From a virus, in the IMG/VR virus record IMGVR_UViG_3300027668_001405, positions 1 through 64,000 of that record: 64,000 nucleotides of DNA, one strand, 5' to 3'. Shown here in pieces: positions 3,911 through 61,774 of this stretch. The number at the start of each line of letters is the position of its first letter. Position 1 is the first letter of the stretch. The notes beneath the pieces were generated by a model, which saw only the letters and a list, made by a program, of their open reading frames with translations, had not been told where the DNA came from and searched no databases. Both the position numbers and the translations under genes were made by a program.

Positions 3911-4012
3911 ATGAGCAAAGCAATAGCATATGCCTTTGTAGGAATATTTACAATCACAACAGGTCTGTATTTCTACATGGACATGATATTAAGAAGTTAT
4001 TTTATAACATGA
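3911..4012 (+). CDS. 33-residue membrane peptide
   Basis: ATG with an AGGAG site 7 bases upstream. The product is one hydrophobic helix (AIAYAFVGIFTITTGLYFY) with a short tail, so a single-span membrane peptide. Its stop overlaps the start of the carbamoyltransferase (ATGA). It could be a true peptide or a leader that couples translation. Confidence 0.45.
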   Translation: MSKAIAYAFVGIFTITTGLYFYMDMILRSYFIT

Positions 4013-5517
4013 AACCTATTAAGATTTGGGGAATAACGACAGGGTCACATGATGCAAGCATTTGTGTTGTGGATCAAAGTCGTACAGGAAGTCTAGAGAT
4101 AGAGTTCGCGGCTCATGCTGAACGTAGCAGTCGCATTAAGAACGACAAGAACCTTAATAGAACACTAATCGAACAGGCACTAGAGTTTGGCAACCCTAGC
4201 GAGATAATACACTACGAACACGACTTACTAAAACGTACTAGACAGCTATGGGCTGGTCAGTACAGTACAGCGTGGAACAAGCCAAGTATTAAGAAGCAGT
4301 TGAAAGCAGTCTATCCAGAACTAGATTGCAAAATTAAGTATGCAAAGCATCATGCAAGTCATGCCGCTGGTGGATACTATACCAGTCAGTTTACAGATGC
4401 AACAGTATTGGTAATTGACAGTATTGGTGAATGGGAAACATTAAGTGTATGGAACGGAGAAGGAAGTAAACTTGAACGTGTGTACAGTCAGAAGTTCCCT
4501 AACAGTCTAGGCATATGGTATAGTGCAATGACACAACGTATAGGTCTTAAACCTAACGAAGATGAATACATATTAATGGGCTGGGCCGCATTAGGTGATC
4601 CCGAAAAGTATAAGATGAAGATATGGAACGACTTCTTCCATCCTATATCAGACAATGGCTTACCAATTGTAAAGCTAAAGAAGAACCTACATCGTGGATG
4701 CAAGGACTGGGCACCAGAGCTAAACAGCATACAAGACTATGCAGACTTAGCCGCAGGTACGCAGGCAGTATATGAATATGTATTCCGTAAACTAGTTAAC
4801 TGGTGCAAGAATAATACACCAAGCAAGAACTTAGTTATAATGGGAGGTTGTGCATTAAATTGTGTAGCCAACACTATAGCAAGACAACATTACAATGATG
4901 TATGGATAATGCCTAACCCAGGTGATGCAGGTAGTAGCTTAGGTGCTATCCTTGCAATCAAGAAGAGGCACATACATTTTAATAGTCCTTACTTAGGTTA
5001 TAGAATCTCAGGAAGTTATCCTGTTAACAAAGCATTAGAAGAACTTAAAATAAATAGAATGGTAGGAGTTGCTAATGGTCGTGCAGAGTTTGGACCCAGA
5101 GCATTAGGTAATAGAAGTTTGTTTGCTGACCCACGTGGAAATGATGTTAAGGACTTAGTCAATACAGTTAAACGTAGACAAGAGTTTAGACCATTTGCTC
5201 CAGTGATACTAGAAGAACATGCAAGTAGTTACTTTGATGGACCAACAGGACCTTATATGCAATACACAAGTGTATGCAGAGACCCAGAAGCATTTCCAGC
5301 AATTGCACACTTAGATAACACAAGTAGAGTACAGACTGTTAATCAGTTCCAACACCCTAAGTTACATGAATTGCTAACACGTTGGTACAAGGATACCGGT
5401 TGTCCAATGTTATTGAATACAAGTTTAAATATTAAAGGTGAGCCAATGGTAGACACTGAGTCAGATGCTCAGAGATGGCAACAAACATATGGAGTTAAGG
5501 TAATAACGCATGACTAA
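4009..5517 (+). CDS. carbamoyltransferase, NodU/CmcH family
   Basis: 502 residues. These enzymes move a carbamoyl group from carbamoyl phosphate, through carbamoyl-adenylate, to a hydroxyl on a sugar or metabolite. Visible family segments are GSHDASICVVD near the start, AKHHASHAAGGYY, NEDEYILMGWAALGDP, GGCALNCVAN, NPGDAGSSLGA, and the C-terminal set AEFGPRALGNRS, RQEFRPFAPVI and LLNTSLNIKGEPMV. It contains both the Kae1-like ATPase part and the YrdC-like carbamoylation part. It is slightly shorter than many bacterial members. The acceptor could be a glycan or a modified DNA base. Confidence 0.9.
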   Translation: MKPIKIWGITTGSHDASICVVDQSRTGSLEIEFAAHAERSSRIKNDKNLNRTLIEQALEFGNPSEIIHYEHDLLKRTRQLWAGQYSTAWNKPSIKKQLKAVYPELDCKIKYAKHHASHAAGGYYTSQFTDATVLVIDSIGEWETLSVWNGEGSKLERVYSQKFPNSLGIWYSAMTQRIGLKPNEDEYILMGWAALGDPEKYKMKIWNDFFHPISDNGLPIVKLKKNLHRGCKDWAPELNSIQDYADLAAGTQAVYEYVFRKLVNWCKNNTPSKNLVIMGGCALNCVANTIARQHYNDVWIMPNPGDAGSSLGAILAIKKRHIHFNSPYLGYRISGSYPVNKALEELKINRMVGVANGRAEFGPRALGNRSLFADPRGNDVKDLVNTVKRRQEFRPFAPVILEEHASSYFDGPTGPYMQYTSVCRDPEAFPAIAHLDNTSRVQTVNQFQHPKLHELLTRWYKDTGCPMLLNTSLNIKGEPMVDTESDAQRWQQTYGVKVITHD

Positions 5518-6947: not shown

Positions 6948-7634
6948 GTGAATAGGAAGATACTACAACAACTAGCTATTATGTTTCAAGCAAGCCCTCA
7001 GCTTATGCGAGACAATGACTTACTATCTAAAGCAATCAATGGAACGTTTGGAGTAGAGATACGACCAGAGTTCGTTAACATTGTTGAACTATCAGAGCAG
7101 ATTGACTATGCTGTACTGGAGAAATACTTCAGTACAGTATGGCAACCACAAACAAAGAAATACAAGTACAGTGGACTAAGCATCATTGATGAAGTCAATG
7201 CATTGCACCCACTTAAAGTATTAGACTTGGGTTGTGGTTATAACGAGTTCAAAGGAAAGATTAATAACCTACTAGGAATTGATCCATACAACGACAAAGC
7301 AGATGTAAAAATAAAGATAATGGATTATGCGAGTGCAGAACCAGCTGATGTTTTAATTTGCTTGGGAAGTATTAACTTTGGAAGCGTAGACAAGATTTAT
7401 AATGAACTAGAACATGCAGTAAAACTCACAAAGAAAGATGGGTTGCTTTATTTTAGAGCTAACCCAGGCACACAACACACAGCTCCAGAAGCAACGTGGA
7501 TTGAGTTCTTTGGATGGACTAGTGAATTTATAATTAACAGTGCAGAGAAACTAGGCTGCTCTATCCTAGAGTTGAGACAAGAAATGGGTGAACGTGGTTC
7601 ACGCTATTACTTTGTGTTTAAAAAGGATAAATAA
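6948..7634 (+). CDS. class I SAM-dependent methyltransferase-like protein
   Basis: 228 residues, GTG start behind AGGAG. SAM-binding motif I is VLDLGCGYNE at 91-100, followed by LLGIDPYN (the acidic residue after strand 2) and LICLGSINFG. A late segment FRANPGTQH precedes a conserved W.EFFGW. The protein at 48791-49525 has the same unusual features and is a paralogue. The substrate is unknown; no target-recognition domain for DNA is visible. Confidence 0.75.
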   Translation: MNRKILQQLAIMFQASPQLMRDNDLLSKAINGTFGVEIRPEFVNIVELSEQIDYAVLEKYFSTVWQPQTKKYKYSGLSIIDEVNALHPLKVLDLGCGYNEFKGKINNLLGIDPYNDKADVKIKIMDYASAEPADVLICLGSINFGSVDKIYNELEHAVKLTKKDGLLYFRANPGTQHTAPEATWIEFFGWTSEFIINSAEKLGCSILELRQEMGERGSRYYFVFKKDK

Positions 7635-7789: not shown

Positions 7790-7820
7790 TGGCAAATTTT
7801 CATACAATTAGGAGAACAAC

Positions 7821-8879
7821 ATGAAAAAAGTAATATTAGGCGCATTAGCAGCTCTAACGTTAACAGCAAGTACAGCATTTGCTGACTATACCCTAATCGT
7901 GCCACAGGCACCTGGTAAGGGCACTTCAGTTTGGAGTGAAATTATTGCTAAGAACTTAGAAAAGTTCCTAGGTGAACCAGTAGTGGTTCGTCATATTCCA
8001 GGCGCACGTGATATTCCTGGTTTCAACAAGTTCCATGACAGTCTACGTTTTGATGATAAAACAATCATGGTTGCACACGGTGGCAACGGTGTATCGTTTC
8101 TATTAGATAAAGTTAGATACAATTATTTCGATTATGAACTAATTGGTTCAATGAACAACGATATCGTTCTTGGTAAACAAGAAGGTAAAGATGAAAAATC
8201 AGGAACTTGGACAATCGCAGGTGGCTCAGGTTTTGAACCAGATGCAGCCGCGGCAGCAATGTTAATCTGTGGCCCACAAACAAACGGTTCAATCGATGCC
8301 TACTTGGCATGTTGGAGAGAACGTGTTGTATGGGTTAACGGTGTATCAGGCGGTGAAAAGCGTCTAGGTTTCCAAAATGGTGAATTTGATATTGCACGTG
8401 AATCACCAGCGGCATGGAAGCGTTTCTATACAGATATCGAAGGTAATGAACTTTGGTTCACACATGGTATCTTAGACTTAGAAAACAATGTACAAATGGA
8501 TGACGCTAACTTCCCGAATACACAATTTGAAGATGTGTATGAAAGATTATATGGCGAACGTCCAGCAGGAGATTTATATCAAGCATATAAACTTACTCGT
8601 AACTGGCGTGACGCAATCCAAAAATCACTTTGGATGAACAAAGGTAACCCGAATGCGGCAAAAGTAAAAGCGGCTGTAACTGCGATGATTAATGACCCAG
8701 TTGCAAGTGCAGAAATTTATGCCAAGACAGGTGTTTATCCTTGGATTCAAGACGGTGATAGTCTATTAGCGGCTCTTAAATCTTTGATTACAGAGAAAGC
8801 CCTAAAAGATGCGGTTCGTTGGAATCAAGAAGCATATGGCTTCCCATCAATCTATAAACCAGAACTACTAGAAGATTAA
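7821..8879 (+). CDS. tctC: TctC/Bug-family periplasmic solute-binding protein
   Basis: 352 residues. A clear signal peptide (MKKVILGALAALTLTASTAFA) precedes the mature start DYTLIVPQAPGKGTS. The opening, with a conserved GEPVVVRHIPGA, is that of the Bug/TctC receptors, which bind carboxylates such as citrate in the periplasm for tripartite tricarboxylate transporters. Bug proteins are usually a little shorter; the extra length lies in the middle (GPQTNGSIDAYLACWRERV). It has a strong ribosome site (AGGAGAACAAC) and is followed 13 bases later by the TctA permease gene. The actual ligand cannot be read. Confidence 0.85.
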   Translation: MKKVILGALAALTLTASTAFADYTLIVPQAPGKGTSVWSEIIAKNLEKFLGEPVVVRHIPGARDIPGFNKFHDSLRFDDKTIMVAHGGNGVSFLLDKVRYNYFDYELIGSMNNDIVLGKQEGKDEKSGTWTIAGGSGFEPDAAAAAMLICGPQTNGSIDAYLACWRERVVWVNGVSGGEKRLGFQNGEFDIARESPAAWKRFYTDIEGNELWFTHGILDLENNVQMDDANFPNTQFEDVYERLYGERPAGDLYQAYKLTRNWRDAIQKSLWMNKGNPNAAKVKAAVTAMINDPVASAEIYAKTGVYPWIQDGDSLLAALKSLITEKALKDAVRWNQEAYGFPSIYKPELLED

Positions 8880-8892
8880 GGAGTAGCATAAC

Positions 8893-10407
8893 ATGTGGTA
8901 TGATTATGTAATGTGGGCGATGATAGGTACTTGTTACGGTATGTTAGTTGGTATTATTCCAATTGCTGGCGTAACAACAGCTCTAATTACTGTCTTTAGC
9001 ATGGGTGCTTACTTTATGGCCGACCCCTATTTGGGGTTGGTCTTTCTTACAGCAATTGTTGCAAGTTGTGCAAGTGCTGATAGTTACACAAGTATCCTAA
9101 CAGGTATACCAGGGGCAAGTACTACAGCCGCCTGTGTTATTGACGGTTATCCAATGGCAAAGAAAGGACAAGCCGCCAGAGCAATGGGAATTGCTATTAC
9201 TGATTCCACATTTAATGGAGTTGTATTCGCGGCATTAACTTTCTTTTTACTTCCTTATTATGGGAAGATTATCGTATTATTTGGACGTCCAGAGTTTCTG
9301 GGCTTTATGACAATGGCTCTAGCCTGTGTAGGCTTTGTAGCAAGTAAAAATGTATTTTTAAGTATCTGTGCAATCATATTTGGATTAGCATTAGGTATGG
9401 TTGGAGAAGATGTTGTAAGTAATCCTAGACTGACATTCGGTTGGGAATATTTACAAAGTGGAATTGGCATGGTTGTTCTACTATCAGGCTTATTCGGAGT
9501 TCCTGAATTATTGGACGGATTTAGAAAGAAATTAAAATCAGCTGCACCACCGCTTGAGGGAGACTATTGGGTTGGACTAAAGCAAGGTTTTGGTGATTGT
9601 AGACGACATTGGAAAGATATGGTTCGTGGCGGTTCAATTGGGTTCGTTACTGGCTTATTGCCGGGCGTAGGAGGAGCAGTAGGCGACTTCTTGGCATACG
9701 GTGCCACAAAAGCCGCACACAAAGGTAAAGACCAAGAAGTTCCATTTGGTGAAGGTAATCCTGTAGGACTACTAGGTTGTGAAGGAGCCAACAATGCACA
9801 AAAAGTATCTAGTATGATACCAGCAGTGTTGTTTGGAATTCCAGCGGCACCATTTGCGGCTATGGTTATGGCAATCTGTATGTACTTTGGTATGGAGATT
9901 GGCACACCAAGTTTACTACAAGATTTGCAATTCACAAATGCTCTAGCATTTGGTTATATATTTGGTACAGTCGGCGTAGCATTGTTGAGTATAGTCTTAT
10001 ACAAATACATTCTTAAAATACTAGAAGTACCTTTCTGGATTTATGCTACATTCATATTAGCAGTAATTGTTTATGCTAATATGCAATATACAGGCGGCTG
10101 GGAAGATTTAGCCTTACTTGCAATTTTAAGTGCTGTCGGTGTTGTATGTAAAACATACAATATTAGTAGACCAGCAATTCTTGTTTCATATGTCGTGGCA
10201 TTTAAAATAGATGAATACTTTTGGGGAACATTACAGTTATATGGATATAAACAATGGAAACCAGGACTAAGTTCTATGTCAGATTTTAGATGGTTTGATT
10301 TATTCAACATTTACAATCATCCTATCTTTATTGTATGTATAATAATCAGTCTTGCTATCTTTATTAACAGTGTTGTTAGAAAAGACAGAGGAATAGATTA
10401 CGTATAA
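8893..10407 (+). CDS. tctA: TctA-family permease of a tripartite tricarboxylate transporter
   Basis: 504 residues, very hydrophobic, about 10-12 membrane spans. The family's duplicated motifs are visible: GMLVGIIPIAGVTT near residue 17, SILTGIPGASTTAA, DGYPMAKKGQAARAMGIA, then the second half GLLPGVGGAVGDFLAYG and CEGANNAQKVSSMIP. TctA is the large ion-coupled permease. A small TctB subunit gene is normally found beside it, but none is present here, so it may be supplied by the host or be unnecessary. Transporters are unusual in phages. Confidence 0.9.
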   Translation: MWYDYVMWAMIGTCYGMLVGIIPIAGVTTALITVFSMGAYFMADPYLGLVFLTAIVASCASADSYTSILTGIPGASTTAACVIDGYPMAKKGQAARAMGIAITDSTFNGVVFAALTFFLLPYYGKIIVLFGRPEFLGFMTMALACVGFVASKNVFLSICAIIFGLALGMVGEDVVSNPRLTFGWEYLQSGIGMVVLLSGLFGVPELLDGFRKKLKSAAPPLEGDYWVGLKQGFGDCRRHWKDMVRGGSIGFVTGLLPGVGGAVGDFLAYGATKAAHKGKDQEVPFGEGNPVGLLGCEGANNAQKVSSMIPAVLFGIPAAPFAAMVMAICMYFGMEIGTPSLLQDLQFTNALAFGYIFGTVGVALLSIVLYKYILKILEVPFWIYATFILAVIVYANMQYTGGWEDLALLAILSAVGVVCKTYNISRPAILVSYVVAFKIDEYFWGTLQLYGYKQWKPGLSSMSDFRWFDLFNIYNHPIFIVCIIISLAIFINSVVRKDRGIDYV

Positions 10408-10473: not shown

Positions 10474-10698
10474 CTATTTAAATAGGTTGTACTTTTTAAT
10501 CTTATGTATCAGCAGTGTTCTACCAATTCCCAATTCTAAAGCAGTATGAGTACGATTGAAACTATGCTTGATAAGAGCTTCTTCAATGCGAGTATGCTCT
10601 AATTCAGCTACTTCTGTAGCTAATGATTGTTCACGAACTGTTCCACCTAGAAAGTTCATTTGGTCCATAATCCAATTTTGTTCGTCATTATTATTCAT
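10474..10698 (-). CDS. Fis-type helix-turn-helix regulator
   Basis: 74 residues from an ATG with GGAG 7 bases upstream; the longer open frame extends past this start but lacks support. The C-terminal half (EEALIKHSFNRTHTALELG, then IGRTLLIHKIKKYNLF) closely follows the Fis-family DNA-binding helix-turn-helix, which ends bacterial Fis and NtrC-type activators. No ATPase domain is present, so it is a stand-alone DNA-binding protein. It is transcribed away from the surface-protein operon, with the 10723-10742 palindrome between them, a layout typical of autoregulation. Confidence 0.75.
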   Translation of the reverse strand: MNNNDEQNWIMDQMNFLGGTVREQSLATEVAELEHTRIEEALIKHSFNRTHTALELGIGRTLLIHKIKKYNLFK

Positions 10699-16575: not shown

Positions 16576-16604
16576 TTGACATTTCAGTCAATTCAATGTA
16601 TTAT
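16576..16604 (+). promoter_or_regulatory. sigma70-type promoter
   Basis: TTGACA at 16576-16581, TATTAT at 16599-16604, spacing 17. RNA should begin near 16611, only a few bases before the ATG at 16615, so the message would be almost leaderless. Confidence 0.6.
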
Positions 16605-16614
16605 TGTAATACAA

Positions 16615-17241
16615 ATGAGTAGACTATTAATTATAACCGGACCACAAGGTAGTGGCAATCATGTATTCAGTAAGTGTTTAGCATTACACGAAAGTGTATT
16701 TGGCTGGAAAAGCCTGTTAAATACGTATTGGGAAGGACATCATCACGAACCTTTTGCTGATGCTTGGGAAGATCCAGAACTACTACATGAGTTTGATTGG
16801 AAACAAAGTGATTACTTTGTAACAAGTGTTAGTACACCATATTTTAAGAATCAAAAAGCAGTGATACCTAACTTTGAAAGATTTATAAACGTTGCACTAC
16901 AATACGTAGATGACATAGACGTAGCAATTATTGGCAGAGATCAAAACATACTAAAATCTCAGCAAACAAGAGTACGTAAGCAACACACTACACCGTTAGC
17001 ATTAGATCATTTTAATTGGTTATTTGCTAACCAACAATGCACATTTTTAAGCCAAGAACTATTATACTTGTACAAGCAGAACTATTTAGAACAAGTAAGC
17101 AGAGATATAGATTGGCCAATAGCCTATTGGGATCCAGAGATAGATGCAATACTATCACATGATGCTAATAATAAGTACGTCAAGGATGTACACGAATACT
17201 GGTTGGACTTCGAAGTTCATAGAGCAGTCAAAGAAAGTTAA
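16615..17241 (+). CDS. P-loop protein, possibly sulfotransferase-like
   Basis: 208 residues from the ATG at 16615; a TTG further upstream coincides with the promoter -35 and is rejected. The start LLIITGPQGSGNHVFSK is a P-loop-like nucleotide or PAPS binding segment, and the next part (CLALHESVFGWKSLLNTYW) resembles the layout of sulfotransferase-fold proteins. The rest is not recognisable. It sits between a radical SAM enzyme and a glycosyltransferase-like gene. Assignment is tentative. Confidence 0.5.
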   Translation: MSRLLIITGPQGSGNHVFSKCLALHESVFGWKSLLNTYWEGHHHEPFADAWEDPELLHEFDWKQSDYFVTSVSTPYFKNQKAVIPNFERFINVALQYVDDIDVAIIGRDQNILKSQQTRVRKQHTTPLALDHFNWLFANQQCTFLSQELLYLYKQNYLEQVSRDIDWPIAYWDPEIDAILSHDANNKYVKDVHEYWLDFEVHRAVKES

Positions 17242-32157: not shown

Positions 32158-34926
32158 ATGAAAAAGTTACTAATTACGGCACTGCTAACAATTTGTTTAA
32201 CAAGCACAGCATACGCCGCACCAGCATTTAAGAGTTACTATGATTACGCAAGTGGTCTAAACAGTGGATTACAAATTAGCTTTTCCACTTCAATGGTAAA
32301 AAACTACAATCGTTCTAATAAATCTTACAAGGGTTTGATTGACAAGTATGATCACTTGTTTAGTAAGTACGGTTGGTTTCAGAACCTTAAGCTAAGGTAC
32401 GCTTTCCAAGTAGAAGAAATCTCAAAGTACAATTTGCTACTTAACAAAGTTGAAGCAAAGGTTACACTAGTAAGCACAAGTTATGTTAATACTAATGGTG
32501 TAATTACTACACGTGGAACTATCTCAGAAACAAGTAATACTGTAGTTGTAGAAGAAACAGTTGACAACAACGTAACAGAGTATGCAGTAGTTACTAAAAC
32601 ATTCTCAACCCCAATTAAGAAACAGGCTTGGGAAAATGTTAATGCTATTACATTATATAGTGATGGAACTAAAGGTTCTACTAACACTACAAAAACAACA
32701 TCAATTACAAATACTGTAGAAACAGAGACAAAGGTAGAGCGTACTGTTATACGTACATACGCATTGGTTGTTGAACCAGTTGTTGTAGTTGAAGAAGTAG
32801 TTGCAGAAGTAGAAGTAGTTGAAGAAGTAGTTGAGGTTGTTGAGGTTGTTGAAGAAGACAAGCCAGTAGTCGTAGTAATTACTGAAGCAGAATATCTTGC
32901 AAGAAACGATGTTACATATACAGATACTGAAACATATCGTAACGCAGTATGGGCAATGAATAGCAGAATCAATCAAACATATACAGACACAGTATTGTCT
33001 AAGCATTATGGTAATCACTTAGAAACTATTGGTGCACCGGCTGCATGGAGCAGAGGTTACACTGGTAAAGGTTCTACTATTGCTATACTTGATACTGGTA
33101 TTGATATGGACCATACGGAATTTAAAGACAGCATTAAAGGTACAAAATGTTTCACACGTAGCTGTAGGTTAGGTATTGAAACAATAGATGATCTTAACAA
33201 GTACTCACACGGAACACACGTTGCAGGTATTGCAGCCGCAAACTTAGATGGTGTAGGTACTACAGGTGTTGCTTATGATGCAGACTTGCTAATTGCAAAG
33301 ACAGCATACGATGCAGGATCATTTGACTTTACAGTTGTAGACGAAGCAATTGAATGGGCAGTTGAAAATGGTGCTGATGTAATTAATATGAGTGCTAACT
33401 ATAACTTTGATAACACATACAAGAACTCAATTACTAAGATGTCAGATGGAATGTTTATGTCAACAGACACACGTGGACGTAATGGTATTACATTTGATAA
33501 GTTTGGTTATGCAGGACTACTAGACAGTCAACATTATTATAAGAACATTGTTAACGCAATGAAAGGACACGAAGCAGTACTAGTAATGTCAGCAGGTAAC
33601 CAAGGTACAGACGTTGTTGGACAGCCAGGCTTTATTGCACTAGATGCAGAAGTTGGTGACAGGGTTTTACTTGTTGGTAACTATGATACACGTTTAGGTA
33701 AAATTGACCGTAGCAGTAACAAAGCTGGTACAATGTGTTTTGATGTTGTAGCTGGTACAAATACATGTGCAAGTGATGCACGTATTAGTGATAGGTATTT
33801 GATGGCGCCAGGACGTTATGTTGCAAGTACAGATAACAATGGAGAGTACAGAACTAACAGTGGTACGTCACAAGCGGCTCCAATGGTATCAGGTGCAGTT
33901 GCAATTGTACACCAAATGTGGCCACACATGACAGGTGCTAACTTGTCTAAGTTGTTGCTAAACACAGCCAGCAAAGATATTGTAGGCTATGATGTAAACG
34001 TACATGGACAAGGATTGCTAGACTTAAACGAAGCTACACTACCACAAGGTGCTATTGGACTTCCTACTACAGGACGAGTTACAGGTGGCAAGGTAGATGT
34101 AAGTAACAGTGGAACAATTGCAGTACAAGGTGGAAGTATCTCATCACTAACAAGTGTTATGGTTGTTGATGCATACGACAGAGACTATTACTTTGATGCT
34201 AACAGCATGGTACAAGTAAACGACACACGTACTACAAGTCCAGTGGAAGCCGCTAAGAATGGTTTTGCACCAGACTACTACATTGGTTTCTCAGGTGGAA
34301 CAGTTATCCCAACAGGTAACGGAAGTACATTCCTAAGCATTAACGAAACTAATAATAACATCAGCTTGCTACAAACATACGATAAGTTCTCATTAGGTCT
34401 TGTTAACGAATCAGACACTTACTTAGGTAACTATGCAAACAGTAGCTTAATGAAAGTAGATGGTAGTAACACAGCATACATTGGTTACAATGAAAGCATT
34501 GACATGGGAGATGGATTAAAGTTTTATGGTAGTGCAACAATTGGTGCAACAAAACTAGATGTTGATAACAGTTCAATGCTTAAGAGTGCAGACATTATGA
34601 TGTCTAACAGTGCTACACTAGGCTTCTCGCAAACTATAAACACAAGAAGTACATTTGGGTTTGTAACAAGTATGCCAGTTAGCATTACAAGTGGTAAAGC
34701 ACACTTTAACTTGCCAACTAGTGTTAGTACTAATGGAGACATTAATAGTTCTAATATGAGTAGCTCATTAGAAGCTCCTAAAAGAGAAGTAGACTTTGGA
34801 TTGTTTTATAACTACAACCCAACAGAGAATACAGCTTTTACAGCTAACATTGAACTACGTACTAACTATGCAGGAACAAGTGAAAACATGGGTACAGCAG
34901 GCGTAAGCTATAAGGTGATGTTTTAA
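32158..34926 (+). CDS. secreted subtilisin-family serine protease with autotransporter-like C-terminus
   Basis: 922 residues. Signal peptide 1-22 (ending TAYAA). A beta-rich region follows, then a Val/Glu low-complexity linker (about 200-240). The S8 catalytic triad is visible: ILDTGIDMDH (D312), SHGTHVAG (H351) and GTSQAAP (S571), with an oxyanion Asn likely in VMSAGNQG. The last ~270 residues are beta-rich, with a glycine/serine pattern and an aromatic last residue (SYKVMF), as in autotransporter barrels that thread the protease to the cell surface. This is very unusual in a phage. AGGAGACAACACT precedes the ATG. Confidence 0.85.
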   Translation: MKKLLITALLTICLTSTAYAAPAFKSYYDYASGLNSGLQISFSTSMVKNYNRSNKSYKGLIDKYDHLFSKYGWFQNLKLRYAFQVEEISKYNLLLNKVEAKVTLVSTSYVNTNGVITTRGTISETSNTVVVEETVDNNVTEYAVVTKTFSTPIKKQAWENVNAITLYSDGTKGSTNTTKTTSITNTVETETKVERTVIRTYALVVEPVVVVEEVVAEVEVVEEVVEVVEVVEEDKPVVVVITEAEYLARNDVTYTDTETYRNAVWAMNSRINQTYTDTVLSKHYGNHLETIGAPAAWSRGYTGKGSTIAILDTGIDMDHTEFKDSIKGTKCFTRSCRLGIETIDDLNKYSHGTHVAGIAAANLDGVGTTGVAYDADLLIAKTAYDAGSFDFTVVDEAIEWAVENGADVINMSANYNFDNTYKNSITKMSDGMFMSTDTRGRNGITFDKFGYAGLLDSQHYYKNIVNAMKGHEAVLVMSAGNQGTDVVGQPGFIALDAEVGDRVLLVGNYDTRLGKIDRSSNKAGTMCFDVVAGTNTCASDARISDRYLMAPGRYVASTDNNGEYRTNSGTSQAAPMVSGAVAIVHQMWPHMTGANLSKLLLNTASKDIVGYDVNVHGQGLLDLNEATLPQGAIGLPTTGRVTGGKVDVSNSGTIAVQGGSISSLTSVMVVDAYDRDYYFDANSMVQVNDTRTTSPVEAAKNGFAPDYYIGFSGGTVIPTGNGSTFLSINETNNNISLLQTYDKFSLGLVNESDTYLGNYANSSLMKVDGSNTAYIGYNESIDMGDGLKFYGSATIGATKLDVDNSSMLKSADIMMSNSATLGFSQTINTRSTFGFVTSMPVSITSGKAHFNLPTSVSTNGDINSSNMSSSLEAPKREVDFGLFYNYNPTENTAFTANIELRTNYAGTSENMGTAGVSYKVMF

Positions 34927-49593: not shown

Positions 49594-50904
49594 ATGCATT
49601 TAGACAACGGTATCATTAAAGATTCAATTACGATAATTAAAAAAGCAACTAACTCAACATACAATTTCTTTTGTATCCCACGAGTAAAAACGATTGCTAT
49701 AATAACATTCGCAGTACTATTAAGCACAACAATTAATTCGTATATGCGACCAATCCAACAAAAACTACACGATGGAATCAATTTCGTTTATGAATATAAC
49801 GAACCAATCGGTGAAGCAATATACGAAGTTAATGGGTTCTTATTTAATGGTAAGAGTTTTGATGCTGAACGTATTGCTAAACGTGTAATATATGATTCGT
49901 ATAGTTCAGTTGTAATAGTTACAGTAGCGTCTAAAGATAAAACAGCAAACAAAGGTATGGCTGGACGAGGCACTGGATTCTTTATTGAAGTAACAGATGA
50001 CTACGCACTTATTGCTACCAACCATCACGTAGTAGATGGGCATATCAACGACAAAACATTTGAGATTTCAATTGGAACATCTACAGAAATGTGGACTTAT
50101 GATGTTGAACTTATTGGCTATGACCAAGTAGCAGATGTTGCAGTTCTAAAAATTCTTAAAAAAGACAACGAAGATTGGAAAGCACTTGAGTGGTCAACAC
50201 AAGACTCTATTAGTGTAGGCGATCCTGTTGTAGTTATTGGACACGGTATGAGTATGCCTTGGACAAGTACACAAGGACATGTTGTTTACAAGGATAGATT
50301 TGGTGCAAGACCATATTCATTAATGCTACAAGTTGACGCAGTTATTAACCAGGGCAACAGTGGTGGACCAGTTATTGATACTAACGGCAAGGTTGTTGGT
50401 ATAGCACAAAGCATTTACAGCCCAGGTAGAAAGATTCCAGGTTGGGATGGTATTGGAATGGCAGTACCTGTAAGACAAGCAAAGCGAGCAATTGAATACA
50501 TTATTAGTCCACTATATATCTCTAAAGGATTTGTACCTTATGCAGAGTTTCCTTTTATGCTAGGAACATTTACACTAGATGAAGTTAAAGATGTTGCACG
50601 TGATGATAGAAGATTTGCATACATTAATTACCCAGAGATAAAAGAAGATGGAACACTTGTACCTAAAACAGTAGGTGAGAAGTCAGGATTCTTACAGGGC
50701 GATATTATAACAAAGATTAATGATATTGATGTATACTCAAGCTTCTATGTATTAAGAGAAACAATATATGCATTTCCAGGTGATATATGGACTGTTACAT
50801 TTACACGTGATGGCGAAGTAATGACTAAGGATATTGCACTAAGTGAAATGGACCATGATAAACTTGTTAAATCTTTAAAGCGTCGAGCTACTGGTGGTAA
50901 GTGA
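49594..50904 (+). CDS. membrane-anchored HtrA/DegP-like serine protease
   Basis: 436 residues. One membrane helix at about 27-48 (VKTIAIITFAVLLSTTI). The trypsin-like triad is visible: TNHHVV (H145), ADVAVLKI (D181), NQGNSGGP (S256). A PDZ-like domain closes the protein (EKSGFLQGDIITKINDID). It should sit in the inner membrane with the protease in the periplasm, where HtrA enzymes degrade or guard unfolded proteins. GATAAATA at 49528 may be a late promoter. Unusual in phages. Confidence 0.88.
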   Translation: MHLDNGIIKDSITIIKKATNSTYNFFCIPRVKTIAIITFAVLLSTTINSYMRPIQQKLHDGINFVYEYNEPIGEAIYEVNGFLFNGKSFDAERIAKRVIYDSYSSVVIVTVASKDKTANKGMAGRGTGFFIEVTDDYALIATNHHVVDGHINDKTFEISIGTSTEMWTYDVELIGYDQVADVAVLKILKKDNEDWKALEWSTQDSISVGDPVVVIGHGMSMPWTSTQGHVVYKDRFGARPYSLMLQVDAVINQGNSGGPVIDTNGKVVGIAQSIYSPGRKIPGWDGIGMAVPVRQAKRAIEYIISPLYISKGFVPYAEFPFMLGTFTLDEVKDVARDDRRFAYINYPEIKEDGTLVPKTVGEKSGFLQGDIITKINDIDVYSSFYVLRETIYAFPGDIWTVTFTRDGEVMTKDIALSEMDHDKLVKSLKRRATGGK

Positions 50905-55494: not shown

Positions 55495-55788
55495 ATGGCG
55501 ATTGAACGGAAAGACAGATCCTTCGATCTGATCTTTGACCAGGTATCTATGGATCATGTTCCTGCTGAATATATCAGAGAAATTATGGTTGACTTAGGTA
55601 CTGGTGAAAGAATAACACTAACTAAAGATGACTTGTTGCTGATTAAGAACAAATCAGCTGATGACATTATATCTGCATTAAGTGTAGATAACATGTCTAA
55701 TATTAGTTTGAAGCTAGACTATGAAGCAATTAAGTCAGATGTGTTACGTGGAGTAACAGGCTTCTTAGGAAAGCATTTTGACGAATAG
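55495..55788 (+). CDS. small acidic protein, unknown
   Basis: 97 residues. RSFDLIFDQVSMDHVPAEYI, then RITLTKDDLLLIKN. Conserved-looking, alpha/beta. A T4 gp33-like late co-activator is one idea by size but no motif supports it. Overlaps the next gene by 11 bases. Confidence 0.55.
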   Translation: MAIERKDRSFDLIFDQVSMDHVPAEYIREIMVDLGTGERITLTKDDLLLIKNKSADDIISALSVDNMSNISLKLDYEAIKSDVLRGVTGFLGKHFDE

Positions 55789-56467
55789 TAACAATATTTG
55801 GATGTGTGGCATCCCCGGTAGTAGATGGAGCGGAATTGATATACAGATCCGCTCCGTGCTATCGTGCGATCGTTCAGATGAAACACGAGCTAGAACCTTT
55901 TACCATAGAGCATATAACCCCTCGGACAGCAATAACGGACATCGTGGCTCTTATTGGGGACCCGGTATGGGCTGTGGAGAGGACTGGACTGATTTCAATC
56001 ATTTAACAAAAGATAAGATTGAGACTGATATACATAACGTTTTTAACGGAGATGGATATCGAGTTATAAAGAACCATTTCTTAGCTCGTCACTTTAATTT
56101 AGATTACATTTGGAATAACTTTCCAGGTGATAAAATAGTACTCATTTATAGAGAACCTCAAAAGAGTTTTGCATGGTGGAGTGAAGTAATGGATTTTAGT
56201 GATCATCACTACCCAAACTACACGCCAGGATACACAGACTACAACACTATGCGTGAGCTACTTTGGAAAGAGAGTGCAAAAATTACAGACTTTGCACTAC
56301 AAAAAGGAATACAGTTTAAACCATACAATGTATCAGAATTTAAACATTGGAATGGATACGATATTGATATAGCTTCGGAGTATGAGATGATAAATATTAC
56401 TAAGCACAATGATGTATATATTGCATCAGTAACAATACCGGAAAAACTAAATGCAGTCCCCCTTTAA
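55778..56467 (+). CDS. sulfotransferase-like protein
   Basis: 229 residues with a TTG start; AGGA lies 8 bases upstream and the start overlaps the preceding gene. MCGIPGSRWSGIDIQIRSVL could be the PAPS phosphate loop (residues 9-28) and KIVLIYREPQKSFAWWSEV matches the sulfotransferase strand with R-x-P and S that bind the 3'-phosphate. It would transfer sulfate from PAPS, perhaps made by the kinase at 6023. First gene of the radical SAM cluster. Confidence 0.6.
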   Translation: MTNSNNIWMCGIPGSRWSGIDIQIRSVLSCDRSDETRARTFYHRAYNPSDSNNGHRGSYWGPGMGCGEDWTDFNHLTKDKIETDIHNVFNGDGYRVIKNHFLARHFNLDYIWNNFPGDKIVLIYREPQKSFAWWSEVMDFSDHHYPNYTPGYTDYNTMRELLWKESAKITDFALQKGIQFKPYNVSEFKHWNGYDIDIASEYEMINITKHNDVYIASVTIPEKLNAVPL

Positions 56468-57155
56468 AACACCATACCATTTTGATAAGTTTAAAACTGA
56501 TCACGAAGGCGAATATTCTAAGAGTATTGGCGTGTTTCAAGGTGATTGGGCTGATGAGATTGTGCATGCAAGAAGCAAGGCTATGGACGAACAGAAATAC
56601 AATACACAACGATACGAACATGCTGCCAATGCTAAGAGCGAGAATCATACAGAAGAAGATAAAGAAAACACAGATGGTAAGCCTTCTGCAATGATGTTCC
56701 GCAAGATAAATTTTGATAAATACCCAGGAGAATTTCCACTATTCCAAAAGATAGTGGAGCATCTAAAGTTTGATACAAGTAAGAAACTGACATGTAAATT
56801 TAATGATCAATATCCAAATGATCAGCTTATGTGGCACATAGACAACTTGCCCGGTAACCCACGTAAGGAACGTGTAATTGACAATCCAGAGTTTAACTAC
56901 GCTAATGACAATAAGATACGTTTTTTAATTACGATGGAAGATTGGGAACCAGGACAGATAATACAGTTTGGTAACAGAATATATACTCAATGGAAAGCAG
57001 GTACTGCTTTTACTTGGGAATGGAGTACGCTACCACACTTAACATGGAACGGCAGTTGGACCAAACGTCCATGTCTACAACTAACAGGAACTGCAACGCC
57101 AGATACATGGAATATTGTAAATGAAGGCAATGCAGAAACAACCTATAAAATTTAA
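56451..57155 (+). CDS. 2-oxoglutarate/Fe(II)-oxygenase-like protein
   Basis: 234 residues. In a jelly-roll pattern, MWHIDNLPGN supplies H129 and D131, LPHLTWNG supplies H196 and KRPCLQLTG supplies R206, matching the H-x-D...H iron triad and the Arg that holds 2-oxoglutarate. Such enzymes hydroxylate amino acid side chains or sugars. The first 80 residues are a charged extension. It precedes a twitch radical SAM gene by 12 bases. Confidence 0.6.
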   Translation: MQSPFKTPYHFDKFKTDHEGEYSKSIGVFQGDWADEIVHARSKAMDEQKYNTQRYEHAANAKSENHTEEDKENTDGKPSAMMFRKINFDKYPGEFPLFQKIVEHLKFDTSKKLTCKFNDQYPNDQLMWHIDNLPGNPRKERVIDNPEFNYANDNKIRFLITMEDWEPGQIIQFGNRIYTQWKAGTAFTWEWSTLPHLTWNGSWTKRPCLQLTGTATPDTWNIVNEGNAETTYKI

Positions 57156-57167
57156 AGGATAATAATT

Positions 57168-58592
57168 ATGGCAGAAAACAAGTTACCCTCGGATACGTTT
57201 TGTATACTACCGTGGATACATTTAAGCACAAGACCAGACGGAAGTATGCGTGTGTGTTGTACAGCTAATGCAAGTGCAGTAGGAGCAACAAATGATAAAG
57301 TACATGGCGGTCGAGTTGGAATTGTAAAAACAGATGATGGTAAACCTGCTAACTTAAACAACAGTGATTTGAATAGTGCGTGGAACAATAGTTACATGCG
57401 TGGCGTTAGACAACAAATGATGGCTGGTGAACAACCACCTAGTTGTGTAAAATGTTATAAAGAAGAAGCGGCTGGACACAGGTCTAAAAGACAGTGGGAA
57501 ACAGACTATTGGATTAAAGACGGTATCGACGTTGAAGATTTAATAAGGGAAACTTACGAAGATGGAAGTACTGATTCTAAACTACGCTATATTGATATCC
57601 GTATGGGGACGAAATGCCAGTTGGGGTGCGTTATGTGTAGCCCACATGACTCTTCAGGCTGGGTAAAAGATTGGAACAAACTATATCCACAAATTACAAA
57701 TGAATCCTTAAAAGAAACTATGAATTGGGATGCTAAAGGTAAGACCTTTGGTGCAAACTATAACTGGCACAAAAACAACCCAACGTTTTGGGATCAGTTT
57801 TATGCACAGATTCCTTATATCAGACAACTATACTTTGCTGGTGGTGAATCAACAGTTATTGAAGAACATTATTCAATCCTATCTAAAGTTATTGAGATGG
57901 GTTACGCACATCAAATTGAAGTGCGTTATAACAGTAATGGTATTGAACTACCAGATCGTTTGCTAGAGCTATGGACACACTTTGAAAAGGTACGTTTCCA
58001 TTACAGTATTGACAGCATTGGTCCAATGAATGATTATATTCGTTATCCAAGTGAATGGTCACATCAGCTAGCAATGTTTGAACGCCTAGATCAAAAGACA
58101 AGTAACAACGTAGAAATTACAATTGCGTGTGCAGTTAATGCACTTAACATTCATTACATTCCAGACTTCCTTAAATGGAAACTTCAGGATAGCGGACTTA
58201 AGAAAACAAATATGTGGCCTTTTGGAGCAGGTGGTATTAACTATCACTTTGTATACTGGCCCGGACATTTGAATGTTAAGATATTGCCAGATGAATTCCT
58301 AGACAAAACAGAAGCCAAGTATGAAGAATTTATTCAATGGTGGAAAGAGAATTGGGAGCTAGGTGTTCCAAGTTGGCATAAGGGTAAAGTAGACTATCAG
58401 AAATGGGAAGATGCTAGTTATGGTATCAAACGTTTACGTGGTATGATTAGCTTTGCTCGTAGTGAAGATTGGACACGCCGACTACCCGAGTTTAGAGAGT
58501 ATATAAACAAGTTAGATGAATTGCGTGGAACAGACTTCCGTGCAACATTCCCAGACATGGCTTACTTGCTTGATGAACCGGATGACACCTGA
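57168..58592 (+). CDS. twitch-domain radical SAM enzyme 1
   Basis: 474 residues. It begins with a half-SPASM (twitch) module: FCILPWIHLS (C12), MRVCCTA (C30, C31) and CVKC (C93, C96), for an auxiliary Fe-S cluster. Then the SAM core CQLGCVMC (C150, C154, C157) and FAGGESTV, YNSNGIEL, YSIDSIGPMN. The auxiliary module comes before the core, the reverse of ordinary SPASM enzymes. Such proteins are seen in marine phages without a known substrate. First of three here. Confidence 0.88.
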   Translation: MAENKLPSDTFCILPWIHLSTRPDGSMRVCCTANASAVGATNDKVHGGRVGIVKTDDGKPANLNNSDLNSAWNNSYMRGVRQQMMAGEQPPSCVKCYKEEAAGHRSKRQWETDYWIKDGIDVEDLIRETYEDGSTDSKLRYIDIRMGTKCQLGCVMCSPHDSSGWVKDWNKLYPQITNESLKETMNWDAKGKTFGANYNWHKNNPTFWDQFYAQIPYIRQLYFAGGESTVIEEHYSILSKVIEMGYAHQIEVRYNSNGIELPDRLLELWTHFEKVRFHYSIDSIGPMNDYIRYPSEWSHQLAMFERLDQKTSNNVEITIACAVNALNIHYIPDFLKWKLQDSGLKKTNMWPFGAGGINYHFVYWPGHLNVKILPDEFLDKTEAKYEEFIQWWKENWELGVPSWHKGKVDYQKWEDASYGIKRLRGMISFARSEDWTRRLPEFREYINKLDELRGTDFRATFPDMAYLLDEPDDT

Positions 58593-58788
58593 GGTTCGTA
58601 AAGAGGCCCATCGACGTTTTTGGATGATCAAGGGCCACTTAGCCTGTAAGGATTGGGACGATGATGCATTATACAAAATGCACGAAAGTTACTTGAAGCG
58701 TTTATGGGGTAATGAAGAAGCATACCTTTGGGAAGAAGGTTTTGAAGAAGCATACTTTAAGTTAACAAATGAACAACCATCAAACTAA
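58582..58788 (+). CDS. small helical protein between two radical SAM genes
   Basis: 68 residues from ATG 58582 (11-base overlap with the radical SAM gene upstream; an ATG at 58573 is also possible). Highly helical and aromatic (RRFWMIKGHLACKDWDDDAL; YLKRLWGNEEAYLWEEGF). It overlaps the next radical SAM gene by 20 bases. Its place between the enzymes makes it a candidate partner or substrate peptide, though no leader/core pattern is plain. Confidence 0.6.
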   Translation: MTPEVRKEAHRRFWMIKGHLACKDWDDDALYKMHESYLKRLWGNEEAYLWEEGFEEAYFKLTNEQPSN

Positions 58789-59980
58789 TACAGACACACA
58801 TTGCACACTGCCTTGGAGTGGTGCGGCAGTTGATGCTGGTGGCAGGGTTGTACCTTGTTGTAGATGGATGGGACCACATGGTGACTTAGACAATGCTCCT
58901 AAAATAGCTAATGGATTAGAAAACGCAAGGAACAGTAAGTTCTTTGAAACAGTACGACAAAGTATGTTAGATGGAAAACGTATTAATGGATGTAAGAAAT
59001 GTTGGGAAGAAGAAGATTTCTTTGGTCCTGAACATCAACAGCGTTGGTTACGTTTACAGCACAATCATAACATACAGGCACTGTCAGTTAATGGAGTAGC
59101 AAACATGACTACCACTGCTCCTACAAAGCTACGGTACCTAGAAACAGGTATAAGCAACCTATGTAACTTTGCTTGTGTAATGTGCAACTCTGCAACCAGC
59201 AGTACGATACACAATATAACAGTCAAAGGCAAAATGCCTAAGAGCTTCCATCAAAACAATAGCGTAATAGATTCAGACTTATCAGAGCTACAATATTTGA
59301 AATTTGTAGGTGGTGAGCCCATGATGGAACGCAAGCATGATGAATTATTAGAAAAGGTTGTTGCATTAAACAATAACCCAACATCACTAGAATTAGAGTA
59401 CCATACTAATGCAAGTATATTTCCAAGCGAGCGTGTAACTACTGCATGGAAGAAAGTAAAATCAGTAAGGATTATATTTAGTTTAGACGGTGTGTATGAG
59501 AAATCTAAACTACAGCGTCCAGGTAGATACAAATGGCAAGATGTAGAAGATACAGTACATAAATATGTACAGCTAGCAGACAAAGTTAATATTATATTCT
59601 CAAGCAATACAGTGTTGACAGCATTGAATGTTGGGCAAGTAATAGATATACTTGAATGGTTATACTCGAGAATAGGACACAAACAACTTGGGTGGTTTAA
59701 TGTACATAAACTGTTTAATGAAAGGTTTAAGTATATAGACCTACGTAATATAAGTCAAGAGAAGAAAACTATTATAAGAAAAGAGTTAACAGATTGGGCG
59801 GCAACAGGTCACCCAGCACTAGACACTCCGCTGAAATCAGTGTATAATGAGACTATAGAAGCACTAGATACACCACCTAGTGGTACATTGACTCTTAGTA
59901 GAGAGTTAATATTAGAAAAGCATTTCCAAAATGATATATGGAAGTACTTCAAAGAAGAATTAAAGGACCTAGAAATATAA
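58769..59980 (+). CDS. twitch-domain radical SAM enzyme 2
   Basis: 403 residues. Auxiliary module HCTLPWSGAA (C12), VVPCCRW (C30, C31), CKKC (C75, C78); SAM cluster CNFACVMC (C132, C136, C139); then KFVGGEPMM, YHTNASIF, FSLDGVYEKS. Same architecture as its neighbour but diverged, so a paralogue, not a fragment. The next gene begins inside its stop codon (TAATG). Confidence 0.88.
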   Translation: MNNHQTNTDTHCTLPWSGAAVDAGGRVVPCCRWMGPHGDLDNAPKIANGLENARNSKFFETVRQSMLDGKRINGCKKCWEEEDFFGPEHQQRWLRLQHNHNIQALSVNGVANMTTTAPTKLRYLETGISNLCNFACVMCNSATSSTIHNITVKGKMPKSFHQNNSVIDSDLSELQYLKFVGGEPMMERKHDELLEKVVALNNNPTSLELEYHTNASIFPSERVTTAWKKVKSVRIIFSLDGVYEKSKLQRPGRYKWQDVEDTVHKYVQLADKVNIIFSSNTVLTALNVGQVIDILEWLYSRIGHKQLGWFNVHKLFNERFKYIDLRNISQEKKTIIRKELTDWAATGHPALDTPLKSVYNETIEALDTPPSGTLTLSRELILEKHFQNDIWKYFKEELKDLEI

Positions 59981-60516
59981 TGAAATACATTTTAGTAGCT
60001 CTAAAAGCAGAATTGCCAGAGCATAATTTAGACCCTACATCATACAAAGTATGGTATACTGGTGTTGGTAAAGTAAATGCATCTATATGGGCAACACTTG
60101 CATGCATACAAAAAGACTGTGAAGCAGTTATTAACTACGGAACAGCAGGTGCATTTAATAGTGAACTAGCAGAACAGTTACTACACATTGGTACAGTAAA
60201 GCAACGTGACATGGATACAAGGCCACAAGCAGAACTAGGTGTTACTCCGTTTGAAGACAGTGGATTTGAAGGTGACATTAAACTTAGTAATAGTGCATAT
60301 ACATGTAGCACTGGTGATAACTTTGTAACAGAGGTTCCAGAATTAGAAAGTGATTGTGTTGATATGGAAGCATATGCAATTGCTAAAGTATGTAAGCACT
60401 TCCAAAAGAATTGCATAGTTTACAAATATATTAGTGACCTAGCAGATTCAGATGCTGCGGCAACGTGGGTAGAGAATCAACACAAAGGAGCAGATGCTTT
60501 TATAGCAATGACCTAG
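59980..60516 (+). CDS. MTA/SAH-nucleosidase-like phosphorylase-fold protein
   Basis: 178 residues from ATG 59980. VALKAELPEHN, TGVGKVNASIW and NYGTAGAFN resemble the purine nucleoside phosphorylase/MTAN fold; DMEAYAIAKVC carries the ribose-binding Met-Glu and ISDLAD the catalytic Asp. MTAN cleaves S-adenosylhomocysteine, methylthioadenosine and also 5'-deoxyadenosine, the by-product of radical SAM enzymes. It sits between two radical SAM genes, so by-product removal is the likely task. A little shorter than bacterial MTAN (about 230). Confidence 0.75.
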   Translation: MKYILVALKAELPEHNLDPTSYKVWYTGVGKVNASIWATLACIQKDCEAVINYGTAGAFNSELAEQLLHIGTVKQRDMDTRPQAELGVTPFEDSGFEGDIKLSNSAYTCSTGDNFVTEVPELESDCVDMEAYAIAKVCKHFQKNCIVYKYISDLADSDAAATWVENQHKGADAFIAMT

Positions 60517-60517
60517 T

Positions 60518-61774
60518 ATGAGTGGATTTTGTTCATTACCTTTTGTACAGTACAGCACATATAACGGAGGCCGTTATAGACTTTGTTGTATGGCTAAAGA
60601 ACCAACTACACTTGTTAACCAAGAAGAGTTGGGTATTAATGGTACATGGAATCACGACTATATTAAAGATGTAAGACGTAGAATGACTGCCGGTGAGAAG
60701 TTATCCGAGTGCAGTGAATGCCATCACTTAGAACGTAATGGAATAATGAGTTCACGTCAATGGGAAAACAAAGTATGGGCAGATGTAATTGATGGAATCG
60801 TAGCAGACGCAAGTGCTAATGATTGGGAAGTTGATCAGCCATTACAGTTTGACTTTAGATTAGGAAACCTATGTAACCTACAGTGTCAGATGTGTAACAA
60901 AGAAGCATCACACTTGGTAAGCGTAGAACGTGCGGCAATGATTAAACGTGGACTAGGAGCTGACCACCCAGATTGGGAAGGACAGATTGCAAGCAAGAAA
61001 GAAGCACTTCTGCAACCTGGAATTGATTGGGTAGACTTTAAAGCCATGTTACCATATGCTCGTAAGATAAAACTAATAGGTGGCGAACCTACAGTAGCAA
61101 CAGATATGTTTAAGCTACTAGATATTGCAACAGAAAGCGGACACGCAGAACACATTGAATTAAGCTTCTACACAAATATTACAAACATGCAAGACAAGTG
61201 GCTAGCTCAGTTAGCTAAGTTTGAGAAAGTCATTGTTAACTGTTCACTAGAAGGAATGGGCGACATGAATGACTATTTGCGTCCACCTAGTAAATGGGCT
61301 AGTGTGTGGAAGAACTTTGATAAATTAGTACAGTTTGCTGATACTAAACCGGGTAAGCGTATTAAGGTACGGGTTACTACAGTAAACCAAATGACTAATG
61401 CATTGCACATAGTTCCTTTTTGGAAGTTTATGCATGATTACCAGATGACTAGTAATAGAGGCATTGGAATGAGTACCAATCAGCTAGTGGAGCCTGCTTA
61501 CTACAGCATGGCACATGCACCTGAATGGTTGAAAGAACAACAACGTGAACAGATTTTGGAATTTCTTAAGTCCATTGACAACAGCCCTCACTTTGAGCAA
61601 TATGAAGAACCACTCATGGAAGTGGTTAACTTTAGTCTTGATAGTGAGCACAAGTTTGATGCTAACATCATGCAACAATATGTCAAGGTCACCGAAAACT
61701 ACGACAGATTCAGAGGACACATGGTTACCAAAGTGTCTCCCGAATTTGAACGAATTAAAAAAGACTCCGAGTGA
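60518..61774 (+). CDS. twitch-domain radical SAM enzyme 3
   Basis: 418 residues. Auxiliary module FCSLPFVQYS (C5), YRLCCMA (C23, C24), CSEC (C65, C68); SAM cluster CNLQCQMC (C119, C123, C126); KLIGGEPTV, YTNITNM and NCSLEGMGD follow. Third member of the family in 5 kb. It lies one base after the nucleosidase gene and the amidinotransferase gene comes next. Confidence 0.88.
   Translation: MSGFCSLPFVQYSTYNGGRYRLCCMAKEPTTLVNQEELGINGTWNHDYIKDVRRRMTAGEKLSECSECHHLERNGIMSSRQWENKVWADVIDGIVADASANDWEVDQPLQFDFRLGNLCNLQCQMCNKEASHLVSVERAAMIKRGLGADHPDWEGQIASKKEALLQPGIDWVDFKAMLPYARKIKLIGGEPTVATDMFKLLDIATESGHAEHIELSFYTNITNMQDKWLAQLAKFEKVIVNCSLEGMGDMNDYLRPPSKWASVWKNFDKLVQFADTKPGKRIKVRVTTVNQMTNALHIVPFWKFMHDYQMTSNRGIGMSTNQLVEPAYYSMAHAPEWLKEQQREQILEFLKSIDNSPHFEQYEEPLMEVVNFSLDSEHKFDANIMQQYVKVTENYDRFRGHMVTKVSPEFERIKKDSE

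What the first reader, a model, noticed from the sequence alone, without database searches (positions are those of the whole stretch)
7821..10407. Tripartite tricarboxylate transporter pair without TctB
TctC-like receptor and TctA-like permease genes are adjacent, with the expected motifs. Transporter genes are rare in viruses. The missing TctB implies reliance on a host subunit. It could keep carbon uptake going in the infected cell.
Basis: partly seen in the sequence, partly recalled or inferred. Interest (0 to 1): 0.7.

Follow-up and report, generated by a model that had tools for sequence, protein, structure and literature searches.

The report
Jumbo-phage carboxylate importer without TctB
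A lineage of giant viruses of bacteria carries its own two-part nutrient importer (a periplasmic catcher protein plus a membrane pump); it is among the best conserved genes these viruses share, which suggests that feeding the infected cell on organic acids matters to them.

Summary
ORF 8893-10407 is a TctA permease (Pfam TctA 4e-86). ORF 7821-8879 is a secreted TctC/Bug-type receptor; sequence libraries miss it, but the fold and tblastn show it. No TctB was found in the 137.8-kb record or in eleven related records of 99-343 kb.

This is not an assembly join or a one-off. The pair recurs in dozens of IMG/VR contigs, including 300-343-kb T4-like contigs with Gp23 capsid and terminase genes. It forms one clade apart from bacterial TTT systems, joined only by one Omnitrophota MAG. 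It occurs in two gene orders beside the same virion and lysis genes. Between the window's phage and two jumbo relatives, TctA and TctC are the two most conserved proteins of those compared (88-93% against a median of 52%; dN/dS 0.05-0.12).

The nearest bacterial relatives found have TctB fused to TctA, so the viral form is best read as a self-contained bipartite importer. "Relies on a host TctB" is not supported, though not excluded. Substrate and host are unknown. Passing mentions of tctA or tricarboxylate transport in marine viruses exist; the lineage, its conservation and its architecture appear undescribed in the papers searched. A surprise nearby: sister jumbo contigs without TctA carry 1-5 orphan TctC receptors each.

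The parts
7821..8879 (+). tctC-like gene: secreted periplasmic solute receptor (352 aa)
   Evidence: AF2 pLDDT 92.7 (40); Foldseek to Bug/TctC (49); tblastn E 5e-18 (42); 77 viral loci (18)
7821..7883 (+). predicted signal peptide MKKVILGALAALTLTASTAFA (by eye; no signal-peptide program was available)
   Evidence: sequence; a hydrophobic N-terminus ending A-x-A then D/E in nearly all relatives
7810..7815 (+). Shine-Dalgarno-like aggaga before tctC
8893..10407 (+). tctA gene: inner-membrane permease (504 aa)
   Evidence: PF01970 4e-86; TM7 motif G-x3-G-x3-G-x2-P-G-x-G intact, TM1 copy reads P-x-A-G
8878..8883 (+). Shine-Dalgarno-like aaggag before tctA, overlapping the tctC stop
6948..7634 (+). 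SAM-methyltransferase-like gene just upstream; a family seen near the pair in 62 of 79 loci, but multi-copy in these phages, so a functional link is unproven
   Evidence: paralogue at 48791-49525 hits Methyltransf_23 weakly, below cut-off

Best explanation
The two genes encode a virus-specific, two-component tripartite-tricarboxylate-type (TTT) importer. Shown: TctC has a signal peptide by eye and the Bug/TctC receptor fold; TctA is a full-length TctA permease; the genes sit together as a pair in a lineage of T4-like jumbo phages, under strong purifying selection. Inferred: in the infected Gram-negative cell, TctC is exported to the periplasm, closes on a carboxylate (probably a di- or tricarboxylate), and hands it to TctA in the inner membrane. 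TctA moves it inward with an ion gradient and without TctB. The gain would be carbon, energy or biosynthetic precursors during a long jumbo-phage infection.
For: TctA Pfam hit 4e-86. TctC model pLDDT 92.7 and Foldseek top 17 all Bug/TctC; tblastn to Paracoccus TctC 5e-18. TctC and TctA adjacent in nearly all complete viral loci, in two gene orders. Records holding the pair plus Gp23 and/or terminase: G003, G009, G011, G013, G016, G028, G041, G048. Single viral clade for both proteins, 100/100 and 100/99. TctA and TctC rank first and second in conservation against two jumbo relatives; dN/dS 0.05-0.12. Pair within <10 kb of the virion-protein marker in 37 of 39 informative close loci, 0 of 39 distant ones. 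No TctB. TctC shares an about 50-residue insertion with the receptors that partner TctAB fusions in bacteria, most of which sit beside a 4-oxalomesaconate tautomerase gene, hence the carboxylate guess.
Against: No transport, binding or expression data. The classic Bug motif P-F-x-A-G-G-x-x-D reads P-Q-x-P-G-x-G-T-S/D, so ligand chemistry may differ. TctA's first motif is altered (P-x-A-G for P-G-x-G) across the viral clade. TctB is poorly conserved and could be missed. Host unknown, so need for import is a guess. No solved TctA structure was matched to check the fold.
Confidence: 0.7

Rival explanations
1. The phage supplies TctA and TctC, and a host TctB completes the transporter.
For: TctB is part of characterised TTT systems (PMC5812351); none is found in the phage.
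Against: Absent across the whole viral clade and from the Omnitrophota MAG with the same pair. The nearest bacterial group found fuses TctB to TctA, which would leave no free TctB if the host has that type. TctA is held able to act alone in archaea (PMC5898192).
Confidence: 0.13
2. The receptor acts mainly in sensing or in changing the periplasm or envelope, with TctA serving that role; net carbon import is secondary.
For: A signalling role has been suggested for surplus TctC proteins in bacteria (PMC5812351); sister jumbo contigs carry orphan TctC receptors with no TctA.
Against: In this lineage the permease is as conserved as the receptor and the two stay together, which argues for transport.
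Confidence: 0.12
3. Passenger genes: recently acquired, no selected function.
For: Lower synonymous divergence than the rest of the genome (dS 0.7-1.0 against about 1.2 or more elsewhere) points to exchange among phages.
Against: dN/dS 0.05-0.12, intact frames in dozens of contigs, a deep viral clade, near-fixed presence beside virion genes in one clade.
Confidence: 0.03
4. Assembly join with a bacterial contig.
For: None found.
Against: The near-identical contig L033 shows the same gene order; more diverged contigs keep the pair among phage genes; about half of the ORFs called in the window's record match jumbo contigs G013/G011.
Confidence: 0.01

Closest known systems
[quoted passage not shown] prototype Salmonella TctCBA citrate system)
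   Same: TctA permease family, TctC/Bug-fold receptor, adjacent genes
   Different: No TctB; receptor below every sequence-library cut-off; altered signature motifs; viral
Alphaproteobacterial tctC - tctAB(fused) operons next to 4-oxalomesaconate tautomerase (Paracoccus, Thalassospira, Shinella, Rhizobium)
   Same: Nearest bacterial group found for both proteins; same C-then-A order as in the window; same receptor insertion
   Different: About 25-34% identity; the bacterial TctA carries a fused TctB-like domain (659-676 aa in three scanned proteins) and is usually two-component regulated; the phage TctA is 504 aa
Omnitrophota MAG pair (L110, WJMG01000074.1)
   Same: Falls in the viral clade in both trees; tctA then tctC, no TctB found
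   Different: Bacterial gene context; 1 of 237 genomes of the phylum searched
tctA / 'tricarboxylate transport' mentions in marine viruses: SUP05 viral contigs (PMC4164917) and an oxygen-minimum-zone myovirus scaffold with norB/nirK (PMC8115048)
   Same: Probably related phage genes (sequences not compared here)
   Different: Mentioned in passing; no receptor, architecture, phylogeny or selection analysis in the passages read

Membership tests
TTT transporter (TctABC) | TctA-family permease, full length | tested here: met
   PF01970 4e-86, profile 2-422 of 423
TTT transporter (TctABC) | TctC/Bug receptor fold with signal peptide | tested here: met
   AF2 + Foldseek, tblastn; signal peptide by eye; Pfam TctC cut-off not reached
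TTT transporter (TctABC) | TctC motif P-F-x-A-G-G-x-x-D | tested here: not met
   P-Q-x-P-G-x-G-T-S/D instead; a hydroxyl residue in place of D is discussed for some Bug proteins (PMC5812351)
TTT transporter (TctABC) | TctA repeat motif G-Hy3-G-Hy3-G-Hy2-P-G-Hy-G in TM1 and TM7 | tested here: inconclusive
   TM7 copy fits; TM1 copy ends P-x-A-G in the viral clade
TTT transporter (TctABC) | TctB subunit | tested here: not met
   No PF07331 match in 12 virus records; profile is weak, so a diverged TctB is not fully excluded
TTT transporter (TctABC) | Ion-coupled carboxylate uptake | not testable with these tools
   needs binding and uptake assays
Fused TctC-TctAB subfamily of Alphaproteobacteria | Receptor insertion shared with this subfamily | tested here: met
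   alignment
Fused TctC-TctAB subfamily of Alphaproteobacteria | TctB domain fused to TctA C-terminus | tested here: not met
   504 aa, no TctB domain
Phage auxiliary metabolic gene | Metabolic gene embedded in a phage genome | tested here: met
   jumbo contigs with Gp23/terminase, virion and lysis genes as neighbours in relatives

The most novel reading that the evidence does not exclude
Carboxylate capture is a recurrent trait of this jumbo-phage group, met in two ways: one lineage owns a complete TctB-free importer (TctC+TctA), while sister phages carry 1-5 orphan Bug receptors that would plug into the host's own permeases and reprogram what the infected cell takes up.
Probability: 0.35. 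Interest if true: 0.82.

Novelty: new variant of a known kind. Interest (0 to 1): 0.62.

Why it matters
Phage nutrient-uptake genes known to me are mostly for phosphate or nitrogen. A complete organic-acid importer that outranks DNA polymerase in conservation would point to carbon supply as a limit on giant-phage infection. The TctB-free architecture also makes the role of TctB, unknown in the TTT family, directly testable with a natural minimal system.

Tried and rejected
Sequence libraries for TctC (Pfam, NCBIfam, PHROGs) gave nothing; the fold settled it. PDB profile search for TctC was weak (best E 0.066). TctA fold search against PDB found no meaningful match. The ORF between tctA and tctC in one subclade (L073, L074, L077, L078) was considered as TctB and rejected: signal peptide, no multiple membrane spans, ends in F like an outer-membrane barrel. 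T4 late-promoter motif TATAAATA: fewer matches than chance, uninformative. Rfam: none. DNA polymerase as a prevalence marker gave mostly short fragments: 0 of 15 records carried the viral-type pair; the one weak hit, in G300, proved to be a Pfam-type TctC; the virion protein marker worked better.

Full report
WHAT IS THERE. The window is bases 1-64000 of a 137,797-base IMG/VR virus record. TctA matches Pfam TctA at 4e-86 over the whole profile. It starts with a signal-peptide-like stretch, seen by eye. An AlphaFold2 model built on 24 viral relatives is confident (pLDDT 92.7), and its 17 best PDB matches are all Bug/TctC receptors, E down to 3e-9. tblastn finds annotated TctC genes of Rhodobacterales at up to 5e-18, 29.5% identity, beside tctA.

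IT IS A PHAGE FEATURE. TctA relatives occur in 31 IMG/VR loci and TctC relatives in 77; TctA lies beside TctC in nearly all. Contigs of 307-343 kb (G003, G011, G013, G041) carry the pair together with the T4-type Gp23 capsid and terminase genes. The window's own record lacks Gp23 and terminase matches, so its phage nature rests on kinship: of 190 ORFs, 91 match G013 and 97 match G011. Most contig flanks show phage genes: PhoH, virion structural proteins, T4-type lysozyme, Rz-like spanin, or terminase and a structural protein directly upstream. A near-identical contig (L033) has the same gene order as the window. An assembly join is excluded for practical purposes, although reads were not available.

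TWO GENE ORDERS, ONE LINEAGE. Close relatives have tctC then tctA; most of the diverged contigs have tctA then tctC. Members of both kinds lie next to the same virion, lysozyme and spanin genes. Using that virion protein as marker, 37 of 39 informative loci with at least 59% marker identity carry the pair within 10 kb, and 0 of 39 more distant loci do (counted by hand from the table; L251 and L252 set aside as cut off). The pair is thus nearly fixed in one clade of these phages. The marker hits were the best 80 of 392, so this is a sample.

SELECTION. Between the window's phage and jumbo contigs G013 and G011, TctA and TctC rank first and second in conservation among 44 and 38 compared proteins (92-93% and 88-89% over global alignments; median 52-53%; DNA polymerase 56-58%). 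dN/dS is 0.055-0.068 for TctA and 0.106-0.117 for TctC (simple Nei-Gojobori counts). dS (0.7-1.0) is below that of the other genes (about 1.2 upward, often saturated), so some lateral exchange among phages is likely besides strong purifying selection.

ORIGIN. Both protein trees put all viral sequences in one group (100/100 and 100/99) with one cellular sequence, a tctA-tctC pair in an Omnitrophota MAG with bacterial flanks. That pair is in 1 of 237 genomes of the phylum. A motif-based scan of 84,980 species found no other relative; it used two short patterns and could miss diverged ones. The nearest other group, among sequences I could reach (mostly Alphaproteobacterial plasmids), is a subfamily with TctC followed by a long TctA; in the three such permeases scanned, Pfam sees a TctB-like domain fused at the C-terminus, below its cut-off. 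Most of these operons lie beside a 4-oxalomesaconate tautomerase gene. Viral TctC shares an insertion of about 50 residues with these receptors that canonical TctC lacks. Direction of transfer with Omnitrophota is open.

TctB. No match in the window's record, in eleven related virus records or in the Omnitrophota MAG. A scan for small multi-span proteins near the pair gave no recurrent candidate. TctB is poorly conserved (PMC5812351), so absence by profile is strong but not final. Archaeal TctA genes are mostly stand-alone and thought able to act alone (PMC5898192). I therefore prefer a self-sufficient bipartite importer to dependence on a host TctB.

MECHANISM, SHOWN AND INFERRED. Shown: receptor fold, permease family, gene pairing, selection. 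Inferred: export of TctC, binding of a carboxylate, delivery to TctA, ion-driven import, benefit to replication. The substrate guess rests on the family (mostly carboxylates) and on the neighbours of the nearest bacterial relatives; the binding-loop motif is altered (P-Q-x-P-G-x-G-T-S/D), so the ligand may be unusual.

LITERATURE. tctA was noted on SUP05 virus contigs (PMC4164917, 'protein domain hit only') and tricarboxylate-transport genes near norB/nirK on an oxygen-minimum-zone myovirus scaffold (PMC8115048). I found no paper on TTT systems in jumbo phages; only open-licence papers were searched.

SIDE FINDING. Seven outgroup contigs of the same phage group, up to 354 kb and picked up by the same virion protein or the DNA polymerase, carry 1-5 ORFs each of canonical Pfam TctC (16 in all), mostly with signal-peptide-like starts, and no TctA. 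The five in G319 are only about 20-26% identical to each other; one is 90% identical between G319 and G313. G309 and G311 share identical copies. Orphan TctC receptors are also over-represented in Betaproteobacteria (PMC5812351). This deserves its own study.

VERDICT. Observation confirmed; interpretation partly supported; new variant of a known kind (a virus-specific, TctB-free TTT lineage). Host, substrate and activity remain unknown.

Noticed in passing
L325-L345 (G300, G309, G310, G311, G313, G318, G319): Outgroup jumbo-phage contigs without TctA carry 1-5 orphan TctC/Bug receptor genes each (16 in all, Pfam TctC up to 7e-39 by hmmscan), mostly with signal-peptide-like starts; strongly diverged within a phage, some conserved between phages.
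   Followed up: partly
L110:3168-5675: An Omnitrophota MAG contig with bacterial flanks (methyltransferases, B12-type radical SAM) holds the only cellular pair that falls in the viral clade.
   Followed up: partly
L077:5372-5959 (also L073, L074, L078): A 195-aa secreted protein ending in F, like an outer-membrane barrel, sits between tctA and tctC in one subclade; could be an outer-membrane channel for the same solute. No Pfam hit.
   Followed up: partly
window 10474-10698, minus strand: Small Fis-type HTH_8 protein (Pfam 1e-9) just downstream of tctA on the opposite strand.
   Followed up: no
window 57168-61774 and G000 65026-85062, 132686-136552: A striking array of radical-SAM/SPASM-like genes (a dozen or more by eye) in one phage record, several shared with G013 and G011.
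   Followed up: no
window 6948-7634, 16576-17241, 55778-57155: Multi-copy families near the pair in many relatives: methyltransferase-like, P-loop/sulfotransferase-like, and a family resembling 2OG oxygenases by eye; mostly no Pfam hit.
   Followed up: partly
window 32158-34926 and 49594-50904: By eye, a subtilisin-type protease with autotransporter-like end and an HtrA-like protease, both with matches in G011 or G013.
   Followed up: no
window 4009-5517: NodU-type carbamoyltransferase (Pfam 8e-51), recurrent near the pair in about a dozen loci.
   Followed up: no
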